From Lentzea indica (GTDB lineage Bacteria; Actinomycetota; Actinomycetes; Mycobacteriales; Pseudonocardiaceae), in assembly GCF_012184385.1 (NCBI RefSeq), contig NZ_VSRL01000006.1, positions 1 through 64,000 of the forward strand: DNA of 64,000 nucleotides. The letters are read 5' to 3'. Below the pieces are notes generated by a model. That model was not told the origin of the DNA, did no database searches, and was given only the letters and a program-made list of their open reading frames with translations. This document shows, piece after piece, positions 51,192-63,173 of this stretch (positions are counted from its first letter, which is position 1; each line of letters begins with the position of its first letter). Both the position numbers and the translations under genes were made by a program.

Positions 51192-51529
51192 CAAGCCTTC
51201 TTGCACCCGCTCAGCTCGGTCTCGATCATGTTGGTCTGGATGCCGGCCGGCTGGTGCTGCTTCGCGGTGCAGATGACCTCGTCGCCGACCTTGACCTCGC
51301 CCTCGATTTCCTTCAACTCGACCCCAGTGCCGCTGAAGTTCACGTTGTCCGGTGCGTCCTTGGGCATCGAACCGACCAGGTGGAGCGACGCTGTCTTTTC
51401 CACGGGGTCGCCTGGAAGGGTCTGCTGGTCGTAGATCTTGGTGACCTTGAGCCGCACCTCGCCCTGCCAGTCGGAGGCACAACCGGCCAGCACGAGGCAG
51501 CCGAGCAGGGCAGCAGCGATCTTGCGCAT
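51191..51529 (-). CDS. DUF4333 lipoprotein
   Basis: This is a 112-aa exported lipoprotein with lipobox L-A-G-C (Cys17). The mature domain is a small beta-rich DUF4333-type fold with two cysteines (VICTAK and SGCKKA) likely to form a disulfide. The function is unknown; related proteins sit on the outer face of the membrane in mycobacteria and relatives. The start overlaps the stop of the MDMPI-type gene. Confidence 0.82.
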   Translation of the reverse strand: MRKIAAALLGCLVLAGCASDWQGEVRLKVTKIYDQQTLPGDPVEKTASLHLVGSMPKDAPDNVNFSGTGVELKEIEGEVKVGDEVICTAKQHQPAGIQTNMIETELSGCKKA

Positions 51530-52284
51530 CAGTGGCCCTTTCCAACCTGGAGCACCTGCAGCAGCTGGGGGTCACCGGACGCGGTGTTGATCGTCATCCG
51601 GTTCCACAGCCAGTAATAGAGCAACTCGGCCTCGCCGCTGACGGAGGCGTCGCCCTCCTCGCCGGGTGCCGCCGCGCGCACCTCGGGCACCTCACCAGGA
51701 CTGAAGGCGACGTGCCACGACTCGGGCACATCGGCCGGCCGCACCACGGCAACGCCCGAGGCTGTGTTGGGCACGTCACTGTCGAGCTTCGCGGCGACGA
51801 TCGTGGTGAGCACCTCGTCGATGCCGTCGGCCGCGAGATCGGCGCTGGTCGGGACGAGCTGGCGCAGCGTCGCCTGCACGTCGAAGCGGCGCAACGTCAT
51901 CTCGTGCGCGATCCGCCGGTGCCACACCCACGCCAGGTCCGGAGCAGCAGGCGAGAACGTCCACACAGGCCGGTTGCCAGGAACGGCGGGCAGGATCTCG
52001 TTCGCCGCGGTGAGCTGGAGATCGAGGTACTCCAGCGGGGTCAGGCTGCCGGGCACGGGCGGCGGGCCGAGCTGAACGCGGCTCCCGGTGCGCAGGTAGC
52101 CGGTGGCGGTCTCCAGGAACCGGGCGACATGCACCACGAGGTCCTGCAACGTCCAGCCCACACGGGTCGACACGTCCGTGGCGAGGTCGGCGTCGCCGAC
52201 CGCCTTGCGGAACATGTCGGCCTGCTCCGCGAACACCTCGGTCCAGCGCTGCGCCGTCCATCCTGTCTGCACCATGCGCGACAT
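51529..52284 (-). CDS. MDMPI/DinB-fold (maleylpyruvate isomerase N-terminal) family protein
   Basis: This is a 251-aa protein. The N-terminal four-helix bundle has the metal-site pattern of the MDMPI family (TRVGWTLQDLVVHVARFLE, then AHEMTLRRFDVQ). A C-terminal SCP2-like region ends in GEAELLYYWLWNRM. Mycothiol-dependent maleylpyruvate isomerase is the founding member; most actinobacterial paralogues are of unknown function. A mycothiol-using enzyme fits the presence of mshD. Confidence 0.83.
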   Translation of the reverse strand: MSRMVQTGWTAQRWTEVFAEQADMFRKAVGDADLATDVSTRVGWTLQDLVVHVARFLETATGYLRTGSRVQLGPPPVPGSLTPLEYLDLQLTAANEILPAVPGNRPVWTFSPAAPDLAWVWHRRIAHEMTLRRFDVQATLRQLVPTSADLAADGIDEVLTTIVAAKLDSDVPNTASGVAVVRPADVPESWHVAFSPGEVPEVRAAAPGEEGDASVSGEAELLYYWLWNRMTINTASGDPQLLQVLQVGKGH

Positions 52285-52370
52285 CGTGCCCGAAACGGAT
52301 CACACATGCGGGTGGAACCGTCCATGATGTGACTGCGTCGCAGGATCAAGGACCAACTGTGGGGGTGGCG

Positions 52371-52694
52371 ATGTTCGGCGTTGAGCCCGAGCTGCTGCGC
52401 AACGCGTCCAAGGAGTTCGGCAACGGCTCCGACGCGGTGCGCGAGGCGGCGGAGATGATCTCGATGCTCAAGCTCGACGCCGGTGCGCTCGGCGAGGTCG
52501 ACGCGGCCGCCGAGTTCGCCGACGCGCTGTCGAAGTTCGTCGGCACGCACGCGCAAGACCTCCAGCGTGGTTCCGCGTGGATCACCGACGCGGCTGAGGG
52601 CCTGGTGTCGAACGCCGACGCCTACCAGCGCACGGAGGACGATCACGCGGCGGCGCTGACGAAGCTCATGCAGGGACTTGGGGGCGGCAAGTGA
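52371..52694 (+). CDS. EspC-like WXG100-superfamily protein
   Basis: This is a 107-aa all-helical protein (MFGVEPELLRNASKEF start), of the DUF2580/EspC group of type VII secretion targets: a helical hairpin with no signal peptide. ATG 52371 follows GGGGGTGG; a GTG at 52329 would add 14 residues. Its stop overlaps the next start (GTGA), so it is made with the large DUF1023 protein and may pair with that protein's N-terminus for export. Confidence 0.8.
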   Translation: MFGVEPELLRNASKEFGNGSDAVREAAEMISMLKLDAGALGEVDAAAEFADALSKFVGTHAQDLQRGSAWITDAAEGLVSNADAYQRTEDDHAAALTKLMQGLGGGK

Positions 52695-54724
52695 GCTACA
52701 CCGACCCGGAGAGCCTGTACGGCAAGCTCGCGGCGGGCGACGCCGGTCGGATCGCCGCGGCCGCAGACCCGATCACCGGCGCGATCAGCGCGGTCGGCAG
52801 GGCAGGCGAGTCGGTCGCCAATGGCGGCAAGACCGCGGTCAGCAACTGGACCGGCGCAACGGCGACGAAGTTCACTGCACGTGCCGAACTCTCCGCCACC
52901 GCCGCCAAGGCCGCCGGTGAACGGCTCGGTGCGGGTGCCGAGATCGTCCAGGCCGCGTCCAAGGCCTATGGCCAGATGCGCACCGCCGCCGACCAGGCGA
53001 TCAGCGTGTGGCGCAGCCGTCCGCCTGGCCTGGACGAAGAGCAGACCCGCACACTCGCCAACCAGGTCAACGACTCGCTCGGCAAGGTCAAGTCCGGCTA
53101 CGAGAACGTGCTCCGGTCCTACGCGGGCGCACTCACCAAGATCCCGCCCGGCTTCGAGGAGTCCGCGCGCACCGACTGCGGCTGGGGCCGCGCCGCACAG
53201 GGTGGAGCCACCGGACCGCAGGTGCCGGGGCCCAACACCGACCCGAAGGCCGTTGCCGAGTGGTGGAAGTCGCTGACGCCCGAACAGCAGCAGGCGTTGC
53301 TGCGCGACCGGTTCCAGGAGCTGGGCAAGCTGCGCGGACTGCCGTCGGACGTGCTCGACAAGGCCAACCGGGCCCGCATCAAGGACGACCTCGGCAAGGC
53401 GAACGCCACGATCGACCAGTCCACGAAGGCGATCAACGAGCGGGCCGCACAGCTCGGGCTGGACCCGAACAACGAAGCCCAACTGCGCAACAGCAACGAC
53501 CCCGAGCTGGCGAAGCTGCTGGACGAGCGGCTGGCCGCCACGAACGTCAAGGAGAACTGCGAGAAGGCCGGCAACAGCCTGAAAAAGGCCGACCAGGAGT
53601 CACAAGCGAAGTTCGGCGAGCCCTCCCGCGTGATGGCGTGGGACCCGACCGGACCGCGTGGGGACGCGCAGATCGCCCTTGCGTTCGGAAACCCGGACAC
53701 CGCGAAGAACCTCGCGGTGTGCGTACCGGGCACCGGGTCGGACGTGGGCGCTTTCAGCTATGGCCAGGCGATCAACCTCCGCGAGGAAATGGGCGGTGGC
53801 AAGGACAACGCCACCATCCAGTGGCTGGGCTACGACGCGCCCGGCTGGTCCCCCGGCGAGGTCGACAACCCCGCGCAGGCTCGTGAGGGCGGCCAGAACC
53901 TGGTGAAGGACGTCGACGGCTACCGCGCCGCCGGACCCGAGGGCCAGCACCTGACCGTGATCGGCCACAGCTACGGCAGTGCCACCGTCGGCCACGCCGG
54001 CATGAACGGCCTGAAGGCGGACGACATCGCGTTCGTCGGGTCGCCTGGCGTCGGCGCGTCGAACGTCAACCAGCTCTCCGCCGGACCTGGCCACGTCTAC
54101 GTCGGTGGCACCGAGCACGACCCGGTCGTGCAGGGCACCAGCTCGAACTGGTTCACCGAGGACGGCTCGTCCACCGGCCCGTACGACAAGGAGTTCGGCG
54201 GCACGCACTTCGGCACCACCGAGTCGAAGGGCATCAAGGAAGCGCACTCCGCCTACTACGACGAGAACAGCGAGTCGCTGGACAACCTCGGCAAGATCGC
54301 GACCGGTCGCGGCAGCGAGGTCAGCAGCGACCCGTGGTACGACCGCCCGACCTCGCCGAACCTGCCCGGCTCCGACCTTCCCGTGGTCGGCCCGGTGCTC
54401 GACTGGGGCAGCGGCGTCGTCAAGGAGGGCGTCGACATGGCGGGCGACGTCTACGAGGGCGGCAAGCAGGTGGCCGGCGACATCGGCCGTGGCGACTGGG
54501 GCGCGGCCGGCGGGCACGCCTGGGACACGGCCAAGGAGGTCGGTAGCGACGCACTCGACGCCACCGTCGACACCGTCGGCAAGACCGCCGAGCTGGGGCG
54601 CGACGTGTACGAGGGCGGCAAGGCCGTCGTCGAGGGCGGAGTCGAGATGGCCAAGGACGCGGGCGGGGCGATCGCGGACGGCGCGAAGTCGGCCTACGAC
54701 AACACGATCGGCCGGATCTTCTAG
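52691..54724 (+). CDS. Large DUF1023 alpha/beta hydrolase with WXG-like N-terminus (candidate ESX substrate)
   Basis: This is a 677-aa protein. Residues 1-130 are helical and WXG/EspC-like, 150-330 form a long helical linker, and 335-500 are a DUF1023 (TAP2-like) hydrolase with nucleophile Ser427 in VIGHSYGSATVG. Residues 560-677 repeat DVYEGGK and related Ala/Gly/Asp blocks. There is no signal peptide. The layout (secretion head, enzyme, tail) and the EspC-like partner suggest type VII export of an esterase or lipase. The substrate is unknown. Confidence 0.83.
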   Translation: MSYTDPESLYGKLAAGDAGRIAAAADPITGAISAVGRAGESVANGGKTAVSNWTGATATKFTARAELSATAAKAAGERLGAGAEIVQAASKAYGQMRTAADQAISVWRSRPPGLDEEQTRTLANQVNDSLGKVKSGYENVLRSYAGALTKIPPGFEESARTDCGWGRAAQGGATGPQVPGPNTDPKAVAEWWKSLTPEQQQALLRDRFQELGKLRGLPSDVLDKANRARIKDDLGKANATIDQSTKAINERAAQLGLDPNNEAQLRNSNDPELAKLLDERLAATNVKENCEKAGNSLKKADQESQAKFGEPSRVMAWDPTGPRGDAQIALAFGNPDTAKNLAVCVPGTGSDVGAFSYGQAINLREEMGGGKDNATIQWLGYDAPGWSPGEVDNPAQAREGGQNLVKDVDGYRAAGPEGQHLTVIGHSYGSATVGHAGMNGLKADDIAFVGSPGVGASNVNQLSAGPGHVYVGGTEHDPVVQGTSSNWFTEDGSSTGPYDKEFGGTHFGTTESKGIKEAHSAYYDENSESLDNLGKIATGRGSEVSSDPWYDRPTSPNLPGSDLPVVGPVLDWGSGVVKEGVDMAGDVYEGGKQVAGDIGRGDWGAAGGHAWDTAKEVGSDALDATVDTVGKTAELGRDVYEGGKAVVEGGVEMAKDAGGAIADGAKSAYDNTIGRIF

Positions 54725-55106: not shown

Positions 55107-55156
55107 ATTAGCGAAGGGGCAGCGGCGCTCCTGGCGCTGTTGGTATATCTGGGGCG

Positions 55157-56683
55157 GTGATCAGGAACTTCGCCGTGGTCGGTCCAGGGCAGGCGACCAG
55201 GGAGCGGCTGACGGCGGCTCTCGCGGCCGCGCCCGACATGGCCGTCTACCGGATCGGGCGGGGTGCTGACCCGTTGCCCGTCTCGGCCACCTTCGACCCC
55301 GCGGACCAGCCGGGCTGCCGGAGCCTGCTGGACTGGTTCGAGCGCGGTGCGCCGTCCGGTGCGGTGTTGCTGGTCGACGACTGGGCGTTGTGCTTCGAGC
55401 AGGATCCTGAGCTTGACAGGACCGTCGAGTGGATCGCGGCGTTCGGGCCCTCGCGTGGTGTGCAGGTCGTTGTCACGGCGCGGAAGTGGGCGGATCTGCC
55501 TGACCGGCTGCGGCGGCACTTCCACGGCGAGCCGACGGACTTCCTCGGGCTGCACGGCATCGAGGCCGATCTGGGCGACATGTGGCAACGGGACGACCTG
55601 AAGGCGGCCGTCGGCGTCGACGAGCGCGGCTGGCCGGTCGACGTCCAGGTGGAGATCGGTGGCGCCGTGCACCGCGGCACGCCGGAACAGCTGCAGAGTT
55701 CGTTGCTGGGCCTCATGGCCACGCACTCGGCCGACTACCTGCAGTACCTCTTCATCGACGGCAGCGGCAGCGGTGTCTTCGACCCGCTGGCCTTCGCGTC
55801 CCAGGTCACGCACACGCTGACGCCGGCAGCGGACGACGCGACCGTCCTGCGGCTGCTGGATGCGCTGGCAGGCGAGCTTGGCAGACGGCAGGAGATCGTC
55901 CACAACGCCGGCAAGTTCAGGAACCTCGCCGACTACCGCGAGGCCGTCCGCAACGGCGCCCCTCTCGATCCGATCGCCGACCTGATGATCTGCGTGGACG
56001 GCGCGGAAGCGTTGTTCAGCAGGGAGCCGCTGTTCGGCCAGCATCTGCTGACCGCGATGCGCGCGGGACGTGTGCTGGGCATGCACGTCCTGTACTCGGG
56101 AGGCATTCCGCAAACCCCTTACGAGTTGCCGGAATGGCCGCTCGCCACGCCGACCTACGACCTGGCCGAGATGCTGGAGCTCCTCCCGCACGCCACCGGC
56201 GGCGGAGTCGCGCACGAGATCATGCTTCCGCCGCTCGGCCACGACGGCACACTGCTGACGCTGGACATGCTCCCGCCCGGCGCGCTCGGTGTCGTCGACA
56301 AGCCCTACGAACACCGCAGGGATCTCCTGGTCCCGGACTTCACGACCGAACTGCGTCACGGCGCCATCGTCGGCGCGCCCGGCACCGGCAAGTCCACGAC
56401 CCTGCGCACGCTGGCCACCGTCCTCGGCGATCTCAGCGCGTACCAGCTGCTCGACGGACCGGGCGAACCCCTTGACCCGCAACGGCACATCGTCGTCACC
56501 GCACGCACGTGGGATCAGGTGCCGCCGTTCATCAGGGACAGCCTGGCGTTCGGGATCGAGCTGCGCTTGGACGACCCGAACACCTCGCTGATCAACGCCC
56601 GCAGCGCGTCGCACGTGCCGCACCTGCCCGGCATCGGGCTTTCCGTGCGCGACAAGACCGCTGTCCAGATCGCACTCCCGTGA
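55157..56683 (+). CDS. EccC/FtsK-like pseudo-ATPase, copy 1
   Basis: This is a 508-aa soluble protein resembling fragments of the ESX ATPase EccC. Residues 25-125 match the Walker-B half of a terminal EccC module (VLLVDDW, then [14 protein letters not shown]) without a P-loop. Residues 165-350 match a full FtsK-type module whose P-loop is gone ([10 protein letters not shown]) and whose Walker B is weak ([11 protein letters not shown]). Residues 375-508 carry an intact Walker [10 protein letters not shown] (406-414), and the final strand, but no Walker B. No membrane helices are present. It overlaps copy 2 by 4 nt. Confidence 0.78.
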
Positions 56684-58935
56684 ACCAGCAGATCTACCGC
56701 ATCGGACGAGGTGCGCCGACCGGCCAGGTCGCCGTGTCGTTCGACCCCGGCGATCACCGCCGCTGCCAGAACCTGCTGGCGTGGTTCGAACGCGGCGGCG
56801 AGCCCGGCGCGACGCTGCTGATCGACGACTGGAAGCTGTGCGTGGAAAGCGATCCCGGACTGGCGAGTTCGGTCAGGTGGATCGCCACGACGGCACGCGA
56901 CGTCCAGGTGATCATCACCGCCGGCGTGCCGAACGATGTGCCGGAGCACCTGCGATCGTTGGTACGACTGGACTTCCTGGCCCTGCACGGCCTGAGCGCC
57001 TTCACCAAGGCCGACGCATGGAAGGGCGAGTGGCGGCAGGTTCCGATCGGTGCCGGCGACACGGGCGGTCCTGTCGTCGTCGAGCTCACCCACTTCCCCG
57101 ACGGGCGGTATCAAGCAGGTTCGCATCTTCACGCGACCACACCGGAAACCTTCCGCAGTCTGATGCTGGGACTGATGACCACCCACTCGCCCAAGATGTT
57201 CCAGGCGGTGTTCATCGACGCGCACGACACGGACACGTTCGCCGGACTCGACGCGGCACCACACGTGCACACGCACTATCGAGACGTGGCAACAGATCCC
57301 GCGCTGATCAAGCAGGTCACCGAGATGCTGCTGGCAGAGTCGGAACGCCGCCTCGAACTCGTCGGCAACACCTGGACGATCTTCCACCACCGCGGCGTCG
57401 ACCAGGTCCTCCCGCAGCTCCTGATCTGCGTCAACGGTTTCCACGAGATCCTCGCCGCGGAACCGGGCTTCGCCACCACCATGGCGGCCATCGCTCAGGA
57501 CGTCGGCAAGTCCGGGATGCAGCTGCTGCTCGACAGCCCGCACGACGTCGCACCGCACAAGGTCCCCGACTGCACCGTGCCTGCGAACCTCGACGACATG
57601 GCGAGGTCGTTGCCACAGCTGATGCACCAGGCCGAACCGGTACCCGGATTCTTCGAACTGCACGGAGTTCCGGACGGTTTCGACCGGCAGCAAACGTGGC
57701 GGATACGTCCGGTCCACGACCAGTACCGGGTCGTTCTCGGCACGGACGAGCACGGCCAGCCGATCGAGATCGACATCAAGTCGAGCAGCCTGCAGGACGG
57801 AATGGGCCCGCACGGCGAGGTGGTCGCGCCGATCGGCCGCCGTGCCGAGTTCCTGCGCGCGATGCTGCTCAGCCAGATGCTGTGGCACTCACCGGACGAC
57901 CTCCGGCTCGTCCTCATCGACTTCCACGGCACGGGCGTGTTCGCGGGGCTCGACAAAGCACCGCATGTGCACGGGTACTACCGCGACCTGGAACCCGCGA
58001 TCGCCGACCGGATCGTCGAAGCGTTGAAGGGCGAGCAGGAACGCCGCACCACCGTGCTCGCGGCCGGCCACTACAGGACGACCTGGGACTACCGCACGGC
58101 GCGCTACGACGGCGCCCCGCTCGACCCGCTGCCGGAAGTGCTCGTCTGCATCGACGGCGTGCAAGGCCTGCTCGAAGCGCATCCGGAGTTCGCCGACGTT
58201 CTGGTCACGTTCGGGCGGTCGGGACGCAGCTACGGCCAGCACCTCCTGCTGTCCGATGCCACGTCGGCCGACGACGTGAAGGACCTCAACACCTTCATCT
58301 CGTACCACTTCGAACTCGCAGGAGAAGGCTGGACCCGGCGCATCAGCAGATCGGTGGAAAATCTCGCTCTCCCACCAGATCTCGACGAGGTGGTGCGGTC
58401 ACTGCCGCACGCGATGCAGAAGGTCGAACCCCTTCACGACCACCTGTTGCCGCCGCCGCTGCACGAGTGGTCCGCACTGACGCTCGACCAGTTCGGCGCC
58501 GTCTCGACGGAACACCCGGTGATGCCGATCGGCCTGCGCGACTGCCCGTTCGAGCACCGCGTCGAGGTGTTCTGCGCCGACTTCTCGCAGGGCGGGCACG
58601 GTGCGATCGTCGGCAAACCGGGCTCCGGCCGCACCACGGCGATGCGGACCTTGACGGAGTCGATCATCAGAACCTTCGGCTCCACCACCGGTTTCCACCT
58701 GGAGGACGGCCCGCTCTACGGCCGCCCCGACGCGCAGCACGTCGTCGTCACCGCGTCGACGTGGGCCGAGGTGCCGCAGTTCATCAGGGACAACCTGGCG
58801 TGGGGTGTCGAACTGAAGCTCGCGGACCCGTCCTGGTCGATCGTGGACGAACGCCGGCAGGCGAACCTCCCCGACCGACCGGGTACGGGCCTCTGCGTGC
58901 ACCTCAAACAGCAGGTGCGGATCGCCACCTCATGA
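56680..58935 (+). CDS. EccC/FtsK-like pseudo-ATPase, copy 2
   Basis: This is a 751-aa tandem paralogue of the upstream protein: both share the YRIGRGA opening, LLxWFERG, LL(V/I)DDW and a C-terminal TW-x-x-V-P-x-F-I-R-D-x-L stretch. It has one extra central module. Both central modules have lost the P-loop (HATTPETFRS and VAPIGRRAEF regions) but keep the LGLMTTHSP/VLIDFHGTGVFAG core and DY.....YDGAPLDPLPE. The last P-loop reads GKPGSGRTT (645-653), with Arg in place of Lys. It may be a scaffold or regulator and not a motor. GTG 56680 overlaps the upstream stop. Confidence 0.78.
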   Translation: MNQQIYRIGRGAPTGQVAVSFDPGDHRRCQNLLAWFERGGEPGATLLIDDWKLCVESDPGLASSVRWIATTARDVQVIITAGVPNDVPEHLRSLVRLDFLALHGLSAFTKADAWKGEWRQVPIGAGDTGGPVVVELTHFPDGRYQAGSHLHATTPETFRSLMLGLMTTHSPKMFQAVFIDAHDTDTFAGLDAAPHVHTHYRDVATDPALIKQVTEMLLAESERRLELVGNTWTIFHHRGVDQVLPQLLICVNGFHEILAAEPGFATTMAAIAQDVGKSGMQLLLDSPHDVAPHKVPDCTVPANLDDMARSLPQLMHQAEPVPGFFELHGVPDGFDRQQTWRIRPVHDQYRVVLGTDEHGQPIEIDIKSSSLQDGMGPHGEVVAPIGRRAEFLRAMLLSQMLWHSPDDLRLVLIDFHGTGVFAGLDKAPHVHGYYRDLEPAIADRIVEALKGEQERRTTVLAAGHYRTTWDYRTARYDGAPLDPLPEVLVCIDGVQGLLEAHPEFADVLVTFGRSGRSYGQHLLLSDATSADDVKDLNTFISYHFELAGEGWTRRISRSVENLALPPDLDEVVRSLPHAMQKVEPLHDHLLPPPLHEWSALTLDQFGAVSTEHPVMPIGLRDCPFEHRVEVFCADFSQGGHGAIVGKPGSGRTTAMRTLTESIIRTFGSTTGFHLEDGPLYGRPDAQHVVVTASTWAEVPQFIRDNLAWGVELKLADPSWSIVDERRQANLPDRPGTGLCVHLKQQVRIATS

Positions 58936-60629: not shown

Positions 60630-61436
60630 TCAGCCGCCCGCGGAACGAACCGCTTCGGAGATCAGCTCGTCCACCTGGTGCATCATGCGGCGGGCGTCGG
60701 TCGGCGTGAACGTGCTCCACGGCGGCTGACCGTTCGAGGCACGGCGTTGCTGCAGGTAGCGGCCTTCTTCAGTGTCGAAGAACGCGACCACTCGCTCGGG
60801 ACGCCAGCGTTTGCCGTACTTGTCGCGGGCCGCTGCACCGAAGTTCCCGGTGTGCACGAGCCCGGTGAACATCTTCACCAGCGCCTTGGCGTCGTCCTCG
60901 CGCAGGCCGATGGTCCTGAACGCGGCCTCCATCGACTTCGGCGAGCCGTCGGTCTGGGAGATCGCCTTCTCGATGTCCTCGCTGGGCAGCGTCACCGAGA
61001 GACCCGTGCCGGCGGGGTGTGCGGGCAGCACCGACAGCACCGCGGAGGCGAGCCCCGAGCCCGCCCACGGCTGGAACGTCAGCTGGTTGTCCCGCAACGT
61101 CGCCAGCGCGCCCCAGTCGCCGTTCGCGACGGCGAGAACGCGCAGGCTGTGGCCGATCCAGAGGCGGCCGTCCGCCTCCCGCTCCGGCTTGACGAACATG
61201 CGCAGCAGTCCGTCCAGTTCGGACGAAAGCCCACGTGAGTTGCCGAGGCGGCGGTGGTCCAGCTGCTGGTAGACGCGGTTCTCGAGCGCGATGCGCTCGT
61301 CACGCGTCTTACCCGGCGAAGGAACCTTGAGCACGAGCGGCATGGGACCGGCGTTCATCCGCTCCCACACCACGTCGAACTCCTCGGCGGAGAGAGTGAT
61401 CGGCTCCCTCTCCGCCGGGCCGCCGAACAGGCTCAC
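60630..61436 (-). CDS. ESX secretion-associated chaperone EspG
   Basis: This is a 268-aa protein of the EspG family, cytosolic chaperones that bind PE-PPE or PPE-like substrates and deliver them to the ESX machine. It has the SLSAEEFDVVWERM-like opening (ITLSAEEFDVVWERMNAG), a central beta-rich core and a helical C-terminus ending ARRMMHQVDELISEAVRS. It overlaps the stop of the PPE-like gene by 4 nt, the usual chaperone-substrate pairing. Confidence 0.9.
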   Translation of the reverse strand: MSLFGGPAEREPITLSAEEFDVVWERMNAGPMPLVLKVPSPGKTRDERIALENRVYQQLDHRRLGNSRGLSSELDGLLRMFVKPEREADGRLWIGHSLRVLAVANGDWGALATLRDNQLTFQPWAGSGLASAVLSVLPAHPAGTGLSVTLPSEDIEKAISQTDGSPKSMEAAFRTIGLREDDAKALVKMFTGLVHTGNFGAAARDKYGKRWRPERVVAFFDTEEGRYLQQRRASNGQPPWSTFTPTDARRMMHQVDELISEAVRSAGG

Positions 61437-62666
61437 TCGGTGAAGCCGCCGATGACCGGCGGCGCGACCATGCGTTCGTCACCGAACACGTCGTCGGTCT
61501 CGACCAGGTAGTCGGCAGCCTTGTGCTCGATGTCGTCCTCGCCCTCGCCCTTCTGGCCGTGCGCGCCACCGGCACCAGCGCCGGCACCCGCCGCACCACC
61601 CTTGCCACCCGCACCGGAGCCCATGGCACCGCCGCGCATCGCGTCGGGGCCGGCACCCATTCCGGGCATGCCGCCGGGCTTCATCGTGCCCTGACTGGAC
61701 GAGCCGAGCGAGCCGGACATCGGGCCGAACGCCTTGCCACCACCGAGCTGACCACCGCGAACGCCACCGAGCTGACCACCGCGGCCACCACCGGGCACGC
61801 CCGTGGTCGGCCGGGTGAACACCGGTCCGCCAGGCGTGGGGCGTCGGGGTGGGCTGAGGCGTCGGCTGCGGGAAGTTCGTCGGCGGCGGCGTCGGAGTGT
61901 GACCCGGCGGCGTCGACGGAGGCTGCGCCCACGACGTGTTGGTGGTGTCGCCGGGCGGCGTCCACGTCTGGGACACGGGCGGCTGAGCCGGCGGCGGCGT
62001 CCACGACGGCGTGGTCGTGCCGGTGTTGCCGGACGGCGAGTGCACGCCGGTCGAGGTGTAGCCGGCGCGCGAGCTGCCGGTGCCGGTGTCGCCAGGCGGA
62101 GGCGTGTCGATCACGACCTGCGGCGGCGTCGGGAACTCACCGAGCGTCGAGCTGTTCCAGCGGCTGTCGGACTGGTAGTCCTCCATGACCTTGACGGCCT
62201 GGGCGGCGGCGTTGTCCGCGGCGGCTTCCTGCCGCTCGTGGTCCACCTGCTGGCCCACGACGTGCGCCATGCCGACCGGACCCGTCAGCGCGCCGACGGC
62301 GATGTCCATGAAGCCCGGCTTCTCGGTCGTGACCGGGACGACCTCGGGCATCTTCTTGCGCGCGTCGGCGATGTACTCGCCCTGCAGGCGCGCGGAGCTC
62401 TCCATCGTGGTCGCGCCCTGCTCGGCGAACCCGGCCCACTCGGCCAGCGGCGACAGCGCGCCCTGAGCGGCGGCGCCGGCGTCGGACTCCCAGTCCGCGC
62501 CCATCTTGGCGAGCGACTGGTGCAGGTCGCCGTCGATCTGGGCGAGCGTGGCGGCGATCTGCTTCCAGCTGCGCTCGACCGGGATGGAGGCGCTGACGCC
62601 AGGGCCGGAGTTGATCATGTTGTACAGCTCGGGGTGGCCATACCCCTGAAAGCGGTGGTCAGTCAT
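61433..62666 (-). pseudogene. PPE-like type VII secretion substrate, single-base frameshift
   Basis: From ATG 62666 the protein has a helical PPE/WXG-like domain (1-165, with W59 in GADWESDAG), a Pro/Thr-rich linker and, after the frame shift, a Gly-rich tail ending in YLVETDDVFGDERMVAPPVI, typical of actinobacterial PPE-like proteins. The frames join if one base is removed from the G-run at 61838-61841 (PTPTPGGPVFTRPTTG), giving 410 aa. Its coupled partner espG supports a secreted role. The indel is probably a sequencing error. Confidence 0.83.
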
Positions 62667-62681: not shown

Positions 62682-63098
62682 TCAGTCCCGGTCCCGCAGG
62701 TGCTTGCCCCACATGGCCTCGTTGTCGCCCTCGGTCTGGCGGTACTGCTCCTCGATCATCTTGAGCTGATCGATGACGCCGACGAGCTGCTGCCGGTAGG
62801 TCTTCAGCGCGGCCAGCGCCTTGCCGGAGGTCTGCTCGTTGAACGCCTTCGACGTCTCACTGCTGATCGGGTCCCCCGCCCAGGGCCTCGTGGGCAGGTC
62901 GTCCGCGACCGGCGTGATCTTCGCGTCGAACTCGTCGAGCGCGTGCTCGAACGCCGCTCGCGTCTGCGGAATCGCATGTGGTTCGACCTTCAGCTTGCGC
63001 TGGCCGAACTCCGGGGGCGACGAGCTGCCTCCACCATCCGCGAGATACACGGGCACACCCTCCTCAGTACGGCCCGCAAGGATGGGCCGTGTGTGCAT
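62682..63098 (-). CDS. Small helical protein of the ESX island
   Basis: This is a 138-aa soluble protein. The N-terminal 40 residues are Gly/Ser-rich and the rest is helical (TRAAFEHALDEFDAKITPVA, then YRQQLVGVIDQLKMIEEQYRQ read in parts), ending EAMWGKHLRDRD. Its size, helical hairpin and position just before the PPE-like gene fit a WXG-like partner. The start is uncertain: ATG 63098 has a weak ribosome site, and a frame to 63170 is also open. Confidence 0.68.
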   Translation of the reverse strand: MHTRPILAGRTEEGVPVYLADGGGSSSPPEFGQRKLKVEPHAIPQTRAAFEHALDEFDAKITPVADDLPTRPWAGDPISSETSKAFNEQTSGKALAALKTYRQQLVGVIDQLKMIEEQYRQTEGDNEAMWGKHLRDRD

Positions 63099-63173
63099 TT
63101 GGGACGACTTTAGCTCTGATGCATTACGCGGGTGACCGGTTCCCGGTACAAGGCACGTAGTTCTACTCAAACG

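What the first reader, a model, noticed from the sequence alone, without database searches (positions are those of the whole stretch)
55157..58935. Tandem EccC-like proteins with degenerate or split ATP sites
The sequence shows two coupled paralogues built from EccC/FtsK modules. In both, the N-terminal part has a Walker-B-like strand but no P-loop, and the C-terminal part has a P-loop but no Walker B. The central modules have lost the P-loop lysine, and the last P-loop of copy 2 is GKPGSGRTT (Arg for Lys). This looks like a circularly permuted or split module pair with duplicated dead modules between. Neither has membrane helices, so they cannot replace EccC directly. They could bind ESX substrates or modulate the real EccC from the cytosol. 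The permutation and role are inference.
Basis: partly seen in the sequence, partly recalled or inferred. Interest (0 to 1): 0.75.

Follow-up and report, generated by a model that had tools for sequence, protein, structure and literature searches.

The report
Scrambled, mostly dead secretion-motor proteins
Lentzea bacteria keep a pair of soluble, mostly inactive copies of the motor that drives type VII protein secretion, one of which has a motor domain cut into two halves at opposite ends of the protein; one half still carries a conserved ATP-binding loop, so the pair is more likely a regulator or adaptor than an engine.

Summary
Two coupled genes (55157-56683; 56680-58935, GTGA overlap) encode EccC-derived proteins without membrane helices. 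Profiles from 17 canonical EccCs read copy 1 as [D2 Walker-B half]-[dead D1]-[D2 P-loop half] in 22 of 22 sequences scored; copy 2 as [weakly D2-like half]-[dead D1]-[dead D1], plus a D2 P-loop half in 4 of 20. In copy 1 the halves are reciprocally depleted and in reversed order, so 'split/permuted' is supported at sequence level; that they re-form one domain is not shown (AlphaFold pLDDT 62). Copy 1's P-loop and DDW motif are kept in 23 of 23 aligned Lentzea; selection is strong on both ends (dN/dS 0.21, 0.29), weak on the middle (0.62). None of 62 central modules keeps the P-loop lysine or catalytic glutamate. The pair was found only in Lentzea. It lies among EspC-, DUF1023-, EspG- and PPE-like genes, but its allele classes reassort independently of DUF1023. 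Most likely: cytosolic pseudo-ATPase regulators or adaptors of EccC (inference). New variant of a known kind, moderately interesting.

The parts
55157..56683 (+). copy 1 (C1), 508 aa, GTG start, half-D2 / dead D1 / half-D2
55157..55576 (+). C1 N module (residues 1-140): Walker-B half of an EccC D2 domain, P-loop absent
   Evidence: D2 best profile in 22 of 22; hhalign E 3.9e-8 to D2 154-209
55364..55384 (+). C1 Walker-B-like strand VLLVDDW (residues 70-76); D74, D75, W76 invariant in 23 of 23
55577..56206 (+). C1 central module (residues 141-350): D1 derived, P-loop Lys and catalytic Glu lost; fast evolving
56261..56680 (+). C1 C module (residues 369-508): P-loop half of D2; D2 profile positions 69-189 unmatched
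56372..56395 (+). C1 P-loop GAPGTGKS (residues 406-413); GxPG[TS]GK[ST] in 23 of 23
56680..58935 (+). copy 2 (C2), 751 aa, starts in a GTGA overlap with the stop of C1
56680..57015 (+). C2 N module (residues 1-112), ATLLIDDW; only weak D2 similarity
57016..57699 (+). C2 central module 1: dead D1
   Evidence: D1 best in 20 of 20
57700..58434 (+). C2 central module 2: dead D1
   Evidence: D1 best in 20 of 20
58435..58932 (+). C2 C module: P-loop half of D2, present in 4 of 20 copy-2 proteins aligned
58612..58635 (+). C2 P-loop GKPGSGRT (Arg for Lys), 4 of 4
55139..55156 (+). conserved promoter-like GTTGGTATATCT just before the GTG start (possible leaderless transcript; inference)
   Evidence: GTTGGTATA in 23 of 24 loci
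52329..52694 (+). neighbour: EspC-like protein
   Evidence: PF10824 E 3.7e-5
52691..54724 (+). neighbour: alpha/beta hydrolase (Abhydrolase_8; DUF1023 is its older name, recalled)
   Evidence: E 7e-28
60630..61436 (-). neighbour: EspG family
   Evidence: PF14011 E 5.1e-67
61479..62666 (-). neighbour: PPE-like protein (just under the Pfam cut-off)
   Evidence: PF00823 24.4 bits, cut-off 26
62682..63170 (-). neighbour: weak WXG100 similarity
   Evidence: PF06013 E 0.1

Best explanation
C1 and C2 are soluble pseudo-ATPases derived from the type VII secretion motor EccC. Shown: EccC descent, module identities (weak for the C2 N module), loss of the catalytic residues in the central modules, and a single intact P-loop, in C1. 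Inferred: they cannot drive secretion themselves; C1 binds ATP through its C-terminal half-D2 and uses that as a conformational switch; through D1/D2-type surfaces the pair joins or caps the cytosolic part of a genuine EccC, or holds Esx/PPE-type substrates for it. They would be dispensable modulators or adaptors of ESX secretion in Lentzea. Whether the C1 N- and C-terminal half-D2s close onto each other into one composite site is left open (about one in three).
For: EccC domain profiles: C1N = D2 in 22/22, C1M = D1 in 22/22, C1C = D2 in 22/22, C2M1 and C2M2 = D1 in 20/20 each, C2C = D2 in 4/4. Foldseek top hit EccC 4nh0, E 3.0e-14 and 6.3e-23. Central modules without Lys or catalytic Glu 62/62. 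C1 P-loop intact 23/23. Median dN/dS: C1N 0.21, P-loop block 0.20, C1C 0.29, C1M 0.62, C2 modules 0.41-0.48. No membrane helix. Own genome holds two canonical EccC genes with three P-loops each. Gene order with EspC, DUF1023, EspG, PPE and WXG-like neighbours shared across the Lentzea loci, with the exceptions listed in the full report. Precedent, from passages read: the DUF domain of EccC5 is a degenerate ATPase found not to bind nucleotide, Walker-B mutants of the ESX-3 DUF abolish secretion, and D2/D3 are degenerate and proposed to be regulatory (PMC11154593).
Against: No direct evidence of an ESX interaction. C1/C2 allele classes do not travel with the neighbouring DUF1023 classes. Outside Lentzea, 3 of 10 loci read keep EspC, DUF1023 and SCP_3 and have no C1/C2 match. 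C1-C2 are not in one operon with the ESX-type genes: an opposite-strand SCP_3 gene lies between. C2 is missing in 3 of 24 loci, and C1 is reduced to its N module in one of those, so the pair is not essential everywhere. The C1 central module, which might carry a binding surface, is the fastest evolving part.
Confidence: 0.5

Rival explanations
1. Composite domain: the N-terminal Walker-B half and the C-terminal P-loop half of C1 fold together into one complete, circularly permuted D2 that binds (perhaps slowly hydrolyses) ATP, clamping the dead D1 between them.
For: Same source domain, reversed order, complementary content: N covers D2 154-209, C covers 21-68 and 190-254. Both ends are under strong constraint while the middle drifts. 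Re-joined C+N sequences score above all 20 shuffled controls in 22 of 22 (median 87 bits against 77 for shuffles; this mainly re-shows that the N half is D2-like, and canonical D2s score 445). Predicted secondary structure would fit an N half with the Walker-B-side strands and a C half with the P-loop-side strands of the five-strand sheet described for EccCb1 D3 (PMC6954902 passage); this fit is my inference.
Against: Both halves carry the strand after Walker B, so the split is not clean; D2 69-153 has no clear match in either (C1 residues 1-62 match D2 only at E 0.02). N modules occur without a C half in 16 of 20 copy-2 proteins aligned and alone in G023. The copy 1 model is too poor to see docking (pLDDT 62, pTM 0.38).
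Confidence: 0.3
2. Decaying remnants of EccC duplications without a selected function.
For: All central catalytic sites dead; C2 absent in 3 of 24 loci, its C module absent in 16 of 20 aligned; C1 reduced in G023; C1M dN/dS 0.62.
Against: dN/dS 0.20-0.29 at the C1 ends and an intact P-loop in 23 of 23; the 4-base overlap kept in 20 of 20 C1-C2 pairs whose junction was read; conserved promoter-like sequence in 23 of 24.
Confidence: 0.12
3. A function outside secretion (for example a structural or regulatory FtsK-like NTP-binding protein) that merely sits near ESX-type genes.
For: Other short pseudo-EccC proteins lie in stretches without a match to the window's ESX-type genes; no allele linkage of C1/C2 to DUF1023.
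Against: Best-scoring domain models are EccC D1 and D2, EccC structures rank above FtsK, and the neighbourhood is shared across Lentzea.
Confidence: 0.2

Closest known systems
EccC, motor ATPase of type VII secretion (TIGR03924/TIGR03925; structure 4nh0)
   Same: D1 and D2 domain sequence and fold
   Different: no membrane helices, no DUF match, no D3, no active D1; in C1 D2 is in two halves in reversed order
EccCb1 (D2-D3 half of the split ESX-1 EccC; PMC6954902 passages)
   Same: EccC part encoded without the membrane domain
   Different: EccCb1 holds ATPase2 and ATPase3; here dead D1s and incomplete D2 halves, and the two EccC genes found in this genome are whole
EccC DUF domain (degenerate ATPase, PMC11154593 passages)
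   Same: P-loop lost; lies before D1
   Different: C1N matches D2 (E 3.9e-8), not DUF (E 0.046)
EssC variants of Staphylococcus aureus (PMC5994694 passages)
   Same: EccC-type protein with sequence classes
   Different: EssC is the membrane motor and its type co-varies with neighbouring substrate genes; C1 classes do not follow DUF1023
Short pseudo-EccC proteins of other Pseudonocardiaceae (D1 without P-loop, D2, mostly D3: L118, L119, L122, L124)
   Same: P-loop-less D1, much shorter than EccC
   Different: D2 matched nearly end to end, no reversed halves; separate branch in the D1 tree

Membership tests
EccC (T7SS motor ATPase) | FtsK/EccC fold and domain sequence | tested here: met
EccC (T7SS motor ATPase) | N-terminal membrane helices | tested here: not met
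   hydropathy
EccC (T7SS motor ATPase) | DUF domain before D1 | tested here: not met
EccC (T7SS motor ATPase) | active D1 with Walker A Lys and Walker B Glu | tested here: not met
   62 of 62 modules lack both
EccC (T7SS motor ATPase) | complete D2 and D3 | tested here: not met
   highest median D3 score 11.6 bits (C2C)
EccC (T7SS motor ATPase) | score above the NCBIfam EccCa/EccCb cut-offs | tested here: not met
   best 149.1 of 346.55 (C1, EccCb) and 248.3 of 509.15 bits (C2, EccCa)
EccC (T7SS motor ATPase) | encoded with EccB/EccD/EccE/MycP | tested here: inconclusive
   8 neighbours at 51.5-63.2 kb scanned, none is one; the rest of the window was not annotated
EccCb (D2-D3 subunit) | complete D2 and D3 | tested here: not met
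split / circularly permuted domain | two parts of one ancestral domain in reversed order (C1) | tested here: met
split / circularly permuted domain | the parts re-form a single fold | tested here: inconclusive
   pLDDT 62, pTM 0.38, no coordinates available
ESX-associated protein | functional or physical link to an ESX system | not testable with these tools
   only gene neighbourhood

The most novel reading that the evidence does not exclude
A naturally circularly permuted EccC D2: the N- and C-terminal halves of C1 close into one composite ATP-binding domain around a dead D1, making a soluble ATP-switched decoy subunit that inserts into the EccC ring and gates ESX secretion.
Probability: 0.2. 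Interest if true: 0.75.

Novelty: new variant of a known kind. Interest (0 to 1): 0.5.

Why it matters
How the degenerate ATPase domains of EccC control its one active domain is an open question. A genus-wide, separately encoded pseudo-EccC with one selectively kept P-loop and a reciprocally split D2 would be a natural, soluble handle on it, and, if the halves re-form a domain, a natural permutation of a RecA-like fold. It also points to further short pseudo-EccC proteins in Pseudonocardiaceae.

Tried and rejected
EccC DUF as the source of the N module: not supported by sequence (E 0.046 against 3.9e-8 for D2), although the module sits in the DUF position. In one search the listed matches outside Lentzea cover only about residues 50-124, most of them in long EccC-sized frames, some in frames of 730-1170 aa. 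Two weak Lentzea matches (G013:C20 and G003:C9, residues 18-84 and 18-98, frames of 884-886 aa) were not followed. Direct descent from the short pseudo-EccCs of other genera: not supported, separate D1 branches (long-branch warnings given). Dedicated partner of the neighbouring DUF1023 gene: not supported, since the window's DUF1023 class occurs in L052 and L059, its C1 class in L039, L040, L057, L059 and L060. DDW as a sign of regained catalysis: dropped, because canonical D3 has DD too (17 of 17). PADLOC mad8 hit (E 6.2e-11 and 2.7e-11): covers about 50 residues around the P-loop only. Nocardia fusca L053: an ordinary D1-D2-D3 EccC piece. C617 FtsK-like protein of the own genome: one D1-like module at 55 bits in a 939-aa frame, set aside as another family. 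Literature in the held library: no paper with 'Lentzea' and 'type VII secretion' or 'EccC' and 'circular permutation'; searches listed none that I recognised as this pair (listings only).

Rows dropped before counts: L041 (Lentzea nigeriaca) is in A1 (23 rows) but was missed by my extraction pattern, so module counts use 22 C1; its C2 is seen by tblastn (residues 5-579) but is not in A2. G008's spurious 'copy 2' frame was dropped. G002, G008 and G023 have no C2, so C2 is present in 21 of 24 loci, 20 of them aligned. In one search the C2 figures of L054, L056 and L061 are cross-matches to C1 and should be ignored.
Full report
What is there. Two + strand genes, 55157-56683 (C1, 508 aa) and 56680-58935 (C2, 751 aa), overlap by GTGA. 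Both match FtsK_SpoIIIE and the EccCa/EccCb models below cut-off. The window belongs to a Lentzea genome: 23 of 23 same-genus genomes hit C1, 22 of them over residues 1-508 in one or two pieces and G023 only over 1-123; 14 of the 15 named hits are Lentzea, the 15th a Nocardia EccC fragment. The same genome has two canonical EccC genes (1403 and 1277 aa as called) with three P-loops each.

Module identity. From 17 canonical EccC proteins I built D1, D2 and D3 profiles (built, used) and a DUF profile. C1: N module best D2 in 22 of 22 (window: D2 156-206, 24.6 bits), middle best D1 in 22 of 22, C module best D2 in 22 of 22 (window: 22-68 plus 190-254; the part with Walker B is unmatched). C2: two D1 modules in 20 of 20; C-terminal D2 half best D2 in 4 of 4 of those that have it; its N module is weak (median 2.7 bits to D2; D2 best in 13 and D3 in 7 of 20, or 12, 7 and DUF 1 with DUF added). 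Profile-profile: C1N to D2 E 3.9e-8, D3 0.005, DUF 0.046, D1 0.13; C2N to D2 only 0.0012; C1C to D2 1.3e-25. phmmer against 4nh0 shows the same split in C1, piece by piece weak (i-E 0.0002 and 0.004 for the C half, 2 for the N half). So C1 is half-D2 / D1 / half-D2, the halves reversed relative to a normal D2 and reciprocally depleted.

Active sites. The C1 P-loop is intact in 23 of 23; the C2 P-loop half carries Arg in 4 of 4. Central modules: Lys in 0 of 62 (56 other residues, 6 gaps), catalytic Glu in 0 of 62. D74, D75 and W76 of C1N are invariant in 23 of 23; canonical D2 has DG (16 of 17 by pattern) and D3 DD (17 of 17), so DD is no sign of catalysis.

Selection. Median dN/dS over 248-253 (C1) and 189-190 (C2) pairs: C1N 0.21, C1M 0.62, C1C 0.29, P-loop block 0.20; C2N 0.41, C2M1 0.41, C2M2 0.48. 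Constraint sits at the two ends of C1. Compared with the window, C1, C2, DUF1023 and the MDMPI-like gene have median dS 0.61-0.74, the WXG-like gene 0.44, and SCP_3, EspG, PPE, EspC and the pectate-lyase-like gene 0.28-0.37 (Nei-Gojobori, so codon bias may contribute). Discrete classes reassort: DUF1023 of the window class in L052 and L059; C1 of the window class in L039, L040, L057, L059 and L060; only L059 has both, of 23.

Structure. AlphaFold on A1: pLDDT 62, pTM 0.38; on A2: 73.6 and 0.65, with N and middle modules good and the C module poor (that module has only four rows). Both find EccC 4nh0 first in the PDB, the whole-chain superpositions being loose (rmsd 15-21). Domain docking could not be read: no coordinates were on hand, and the second aligner was not installed.

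Distribution and neighbours. In the 23 Lentzea loci compared with the window, tblastn places MDMPI / EspC / DUF1023 / SCP_3 / C1 / C2 / pectate-lyase-like / EspG / PPE / WXG in the same order, with these exceptions: C2 is absent in L054 and L056; L061 keeps only the C1 N module; in L057 no pectate-lyase-like hit was found and the stretch ends within PPE, before the WXG gene. The solo N module of L061 ends in a tail that resembles the C module, perhaps the mark of a deletion between the two repeats (inference). In 10 non-Lentzea loci fetched around the pectate-lyase-like gene, no C1/C2 match was found at E 1e-3; 3 of them keep EspC, DUF1023 and SCP_3. In two of those (L141, L142) the stretch between SCP_3 and the pectate-lyase-like gene codes for other genes, among them an ILVD/EDD dehydratase (ORF lists; Pfam on L142). 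The D1 tree puts the Lentzea modules on one side of a branch (100/99); in the larger Lentzea sample, with canonical D1 taken as outgroup, C1M is sister to C2M1+C2M2. Both trees carry long-branch warnings.

How it may work. No module has all the residues of a working ATPase. The best-supported view is a soluble pseudo-ATPase pair with one ATP-binding site, acting on or beside EccC; the action is inference. Precedent for dead ATPase domains mattering in this motor: passages of PMC11154593. EccCb1 D3 binds ATP with a hhhhDD Walker B and binds the EsxB peptide in passages of PMC6954902. The analogy with S. aureus EssC types (PMC5994694 passages) fails on one point: there types co-vary with neighbouring substrate genes, here C1 classes do not follow DUF1023.

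Limits. No expression, binding or secretion data; the ESX role rests on descent and neighbourhood. The short pseudo-EccCs of other genera were sampled, not surveyed.

Noticed in passing
L118 5177-7210, L119 5769-8492, L122 5119-7755, L124 4916-7738: Other short EccC-like proteins (678-941 aa: D1 without P-loop, D2, in three of the four also D3; N termini proline-rich as printed for L118, L119 and L122) in other Pseudonocardiaceae. A PIG-L gene lies near the L119 one and a GreA gene near the L122 one (Pfam); similar PIG-L-like ORFs are seen in L118 and L122. Membrane helices were not tested.
   Followed up: partly
L120 5236-7389, L126 2-2752: Caspase (Peptidase_C14) domain joined to EccC-type D2 and then D1 with an intact GATGSGKS P-loop, i.e. 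D2 before D1.
   Followed up: partly
window 51529-54724 and 55157-58935: Two stretches of raised synonymous divergence (MDMPI/DUF1023, though not EspC between them, and C1/C2) with independently reassorting classes, between better conserved genes.
   Followed up: partly
window 55139-55156: Conserved GTTGGTATA about 10 bases before the GTG start of C1 in 23 of 24 Lentzea loci; would fit a leaderless transcript.
   Followed up: no
L061 5624-6007: In Lentzea G023 only a 127-aa N module remains at the locus, ending with a tail resembling the C module.
   Followed up: partly
L057 1698-5734: G013 shows no pectate-lyase-like neighbour (no match at E 1e-60 in its genome; none in L057 at 1e-8); about 4 kb of other DNA lies there.
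   Followed up: no
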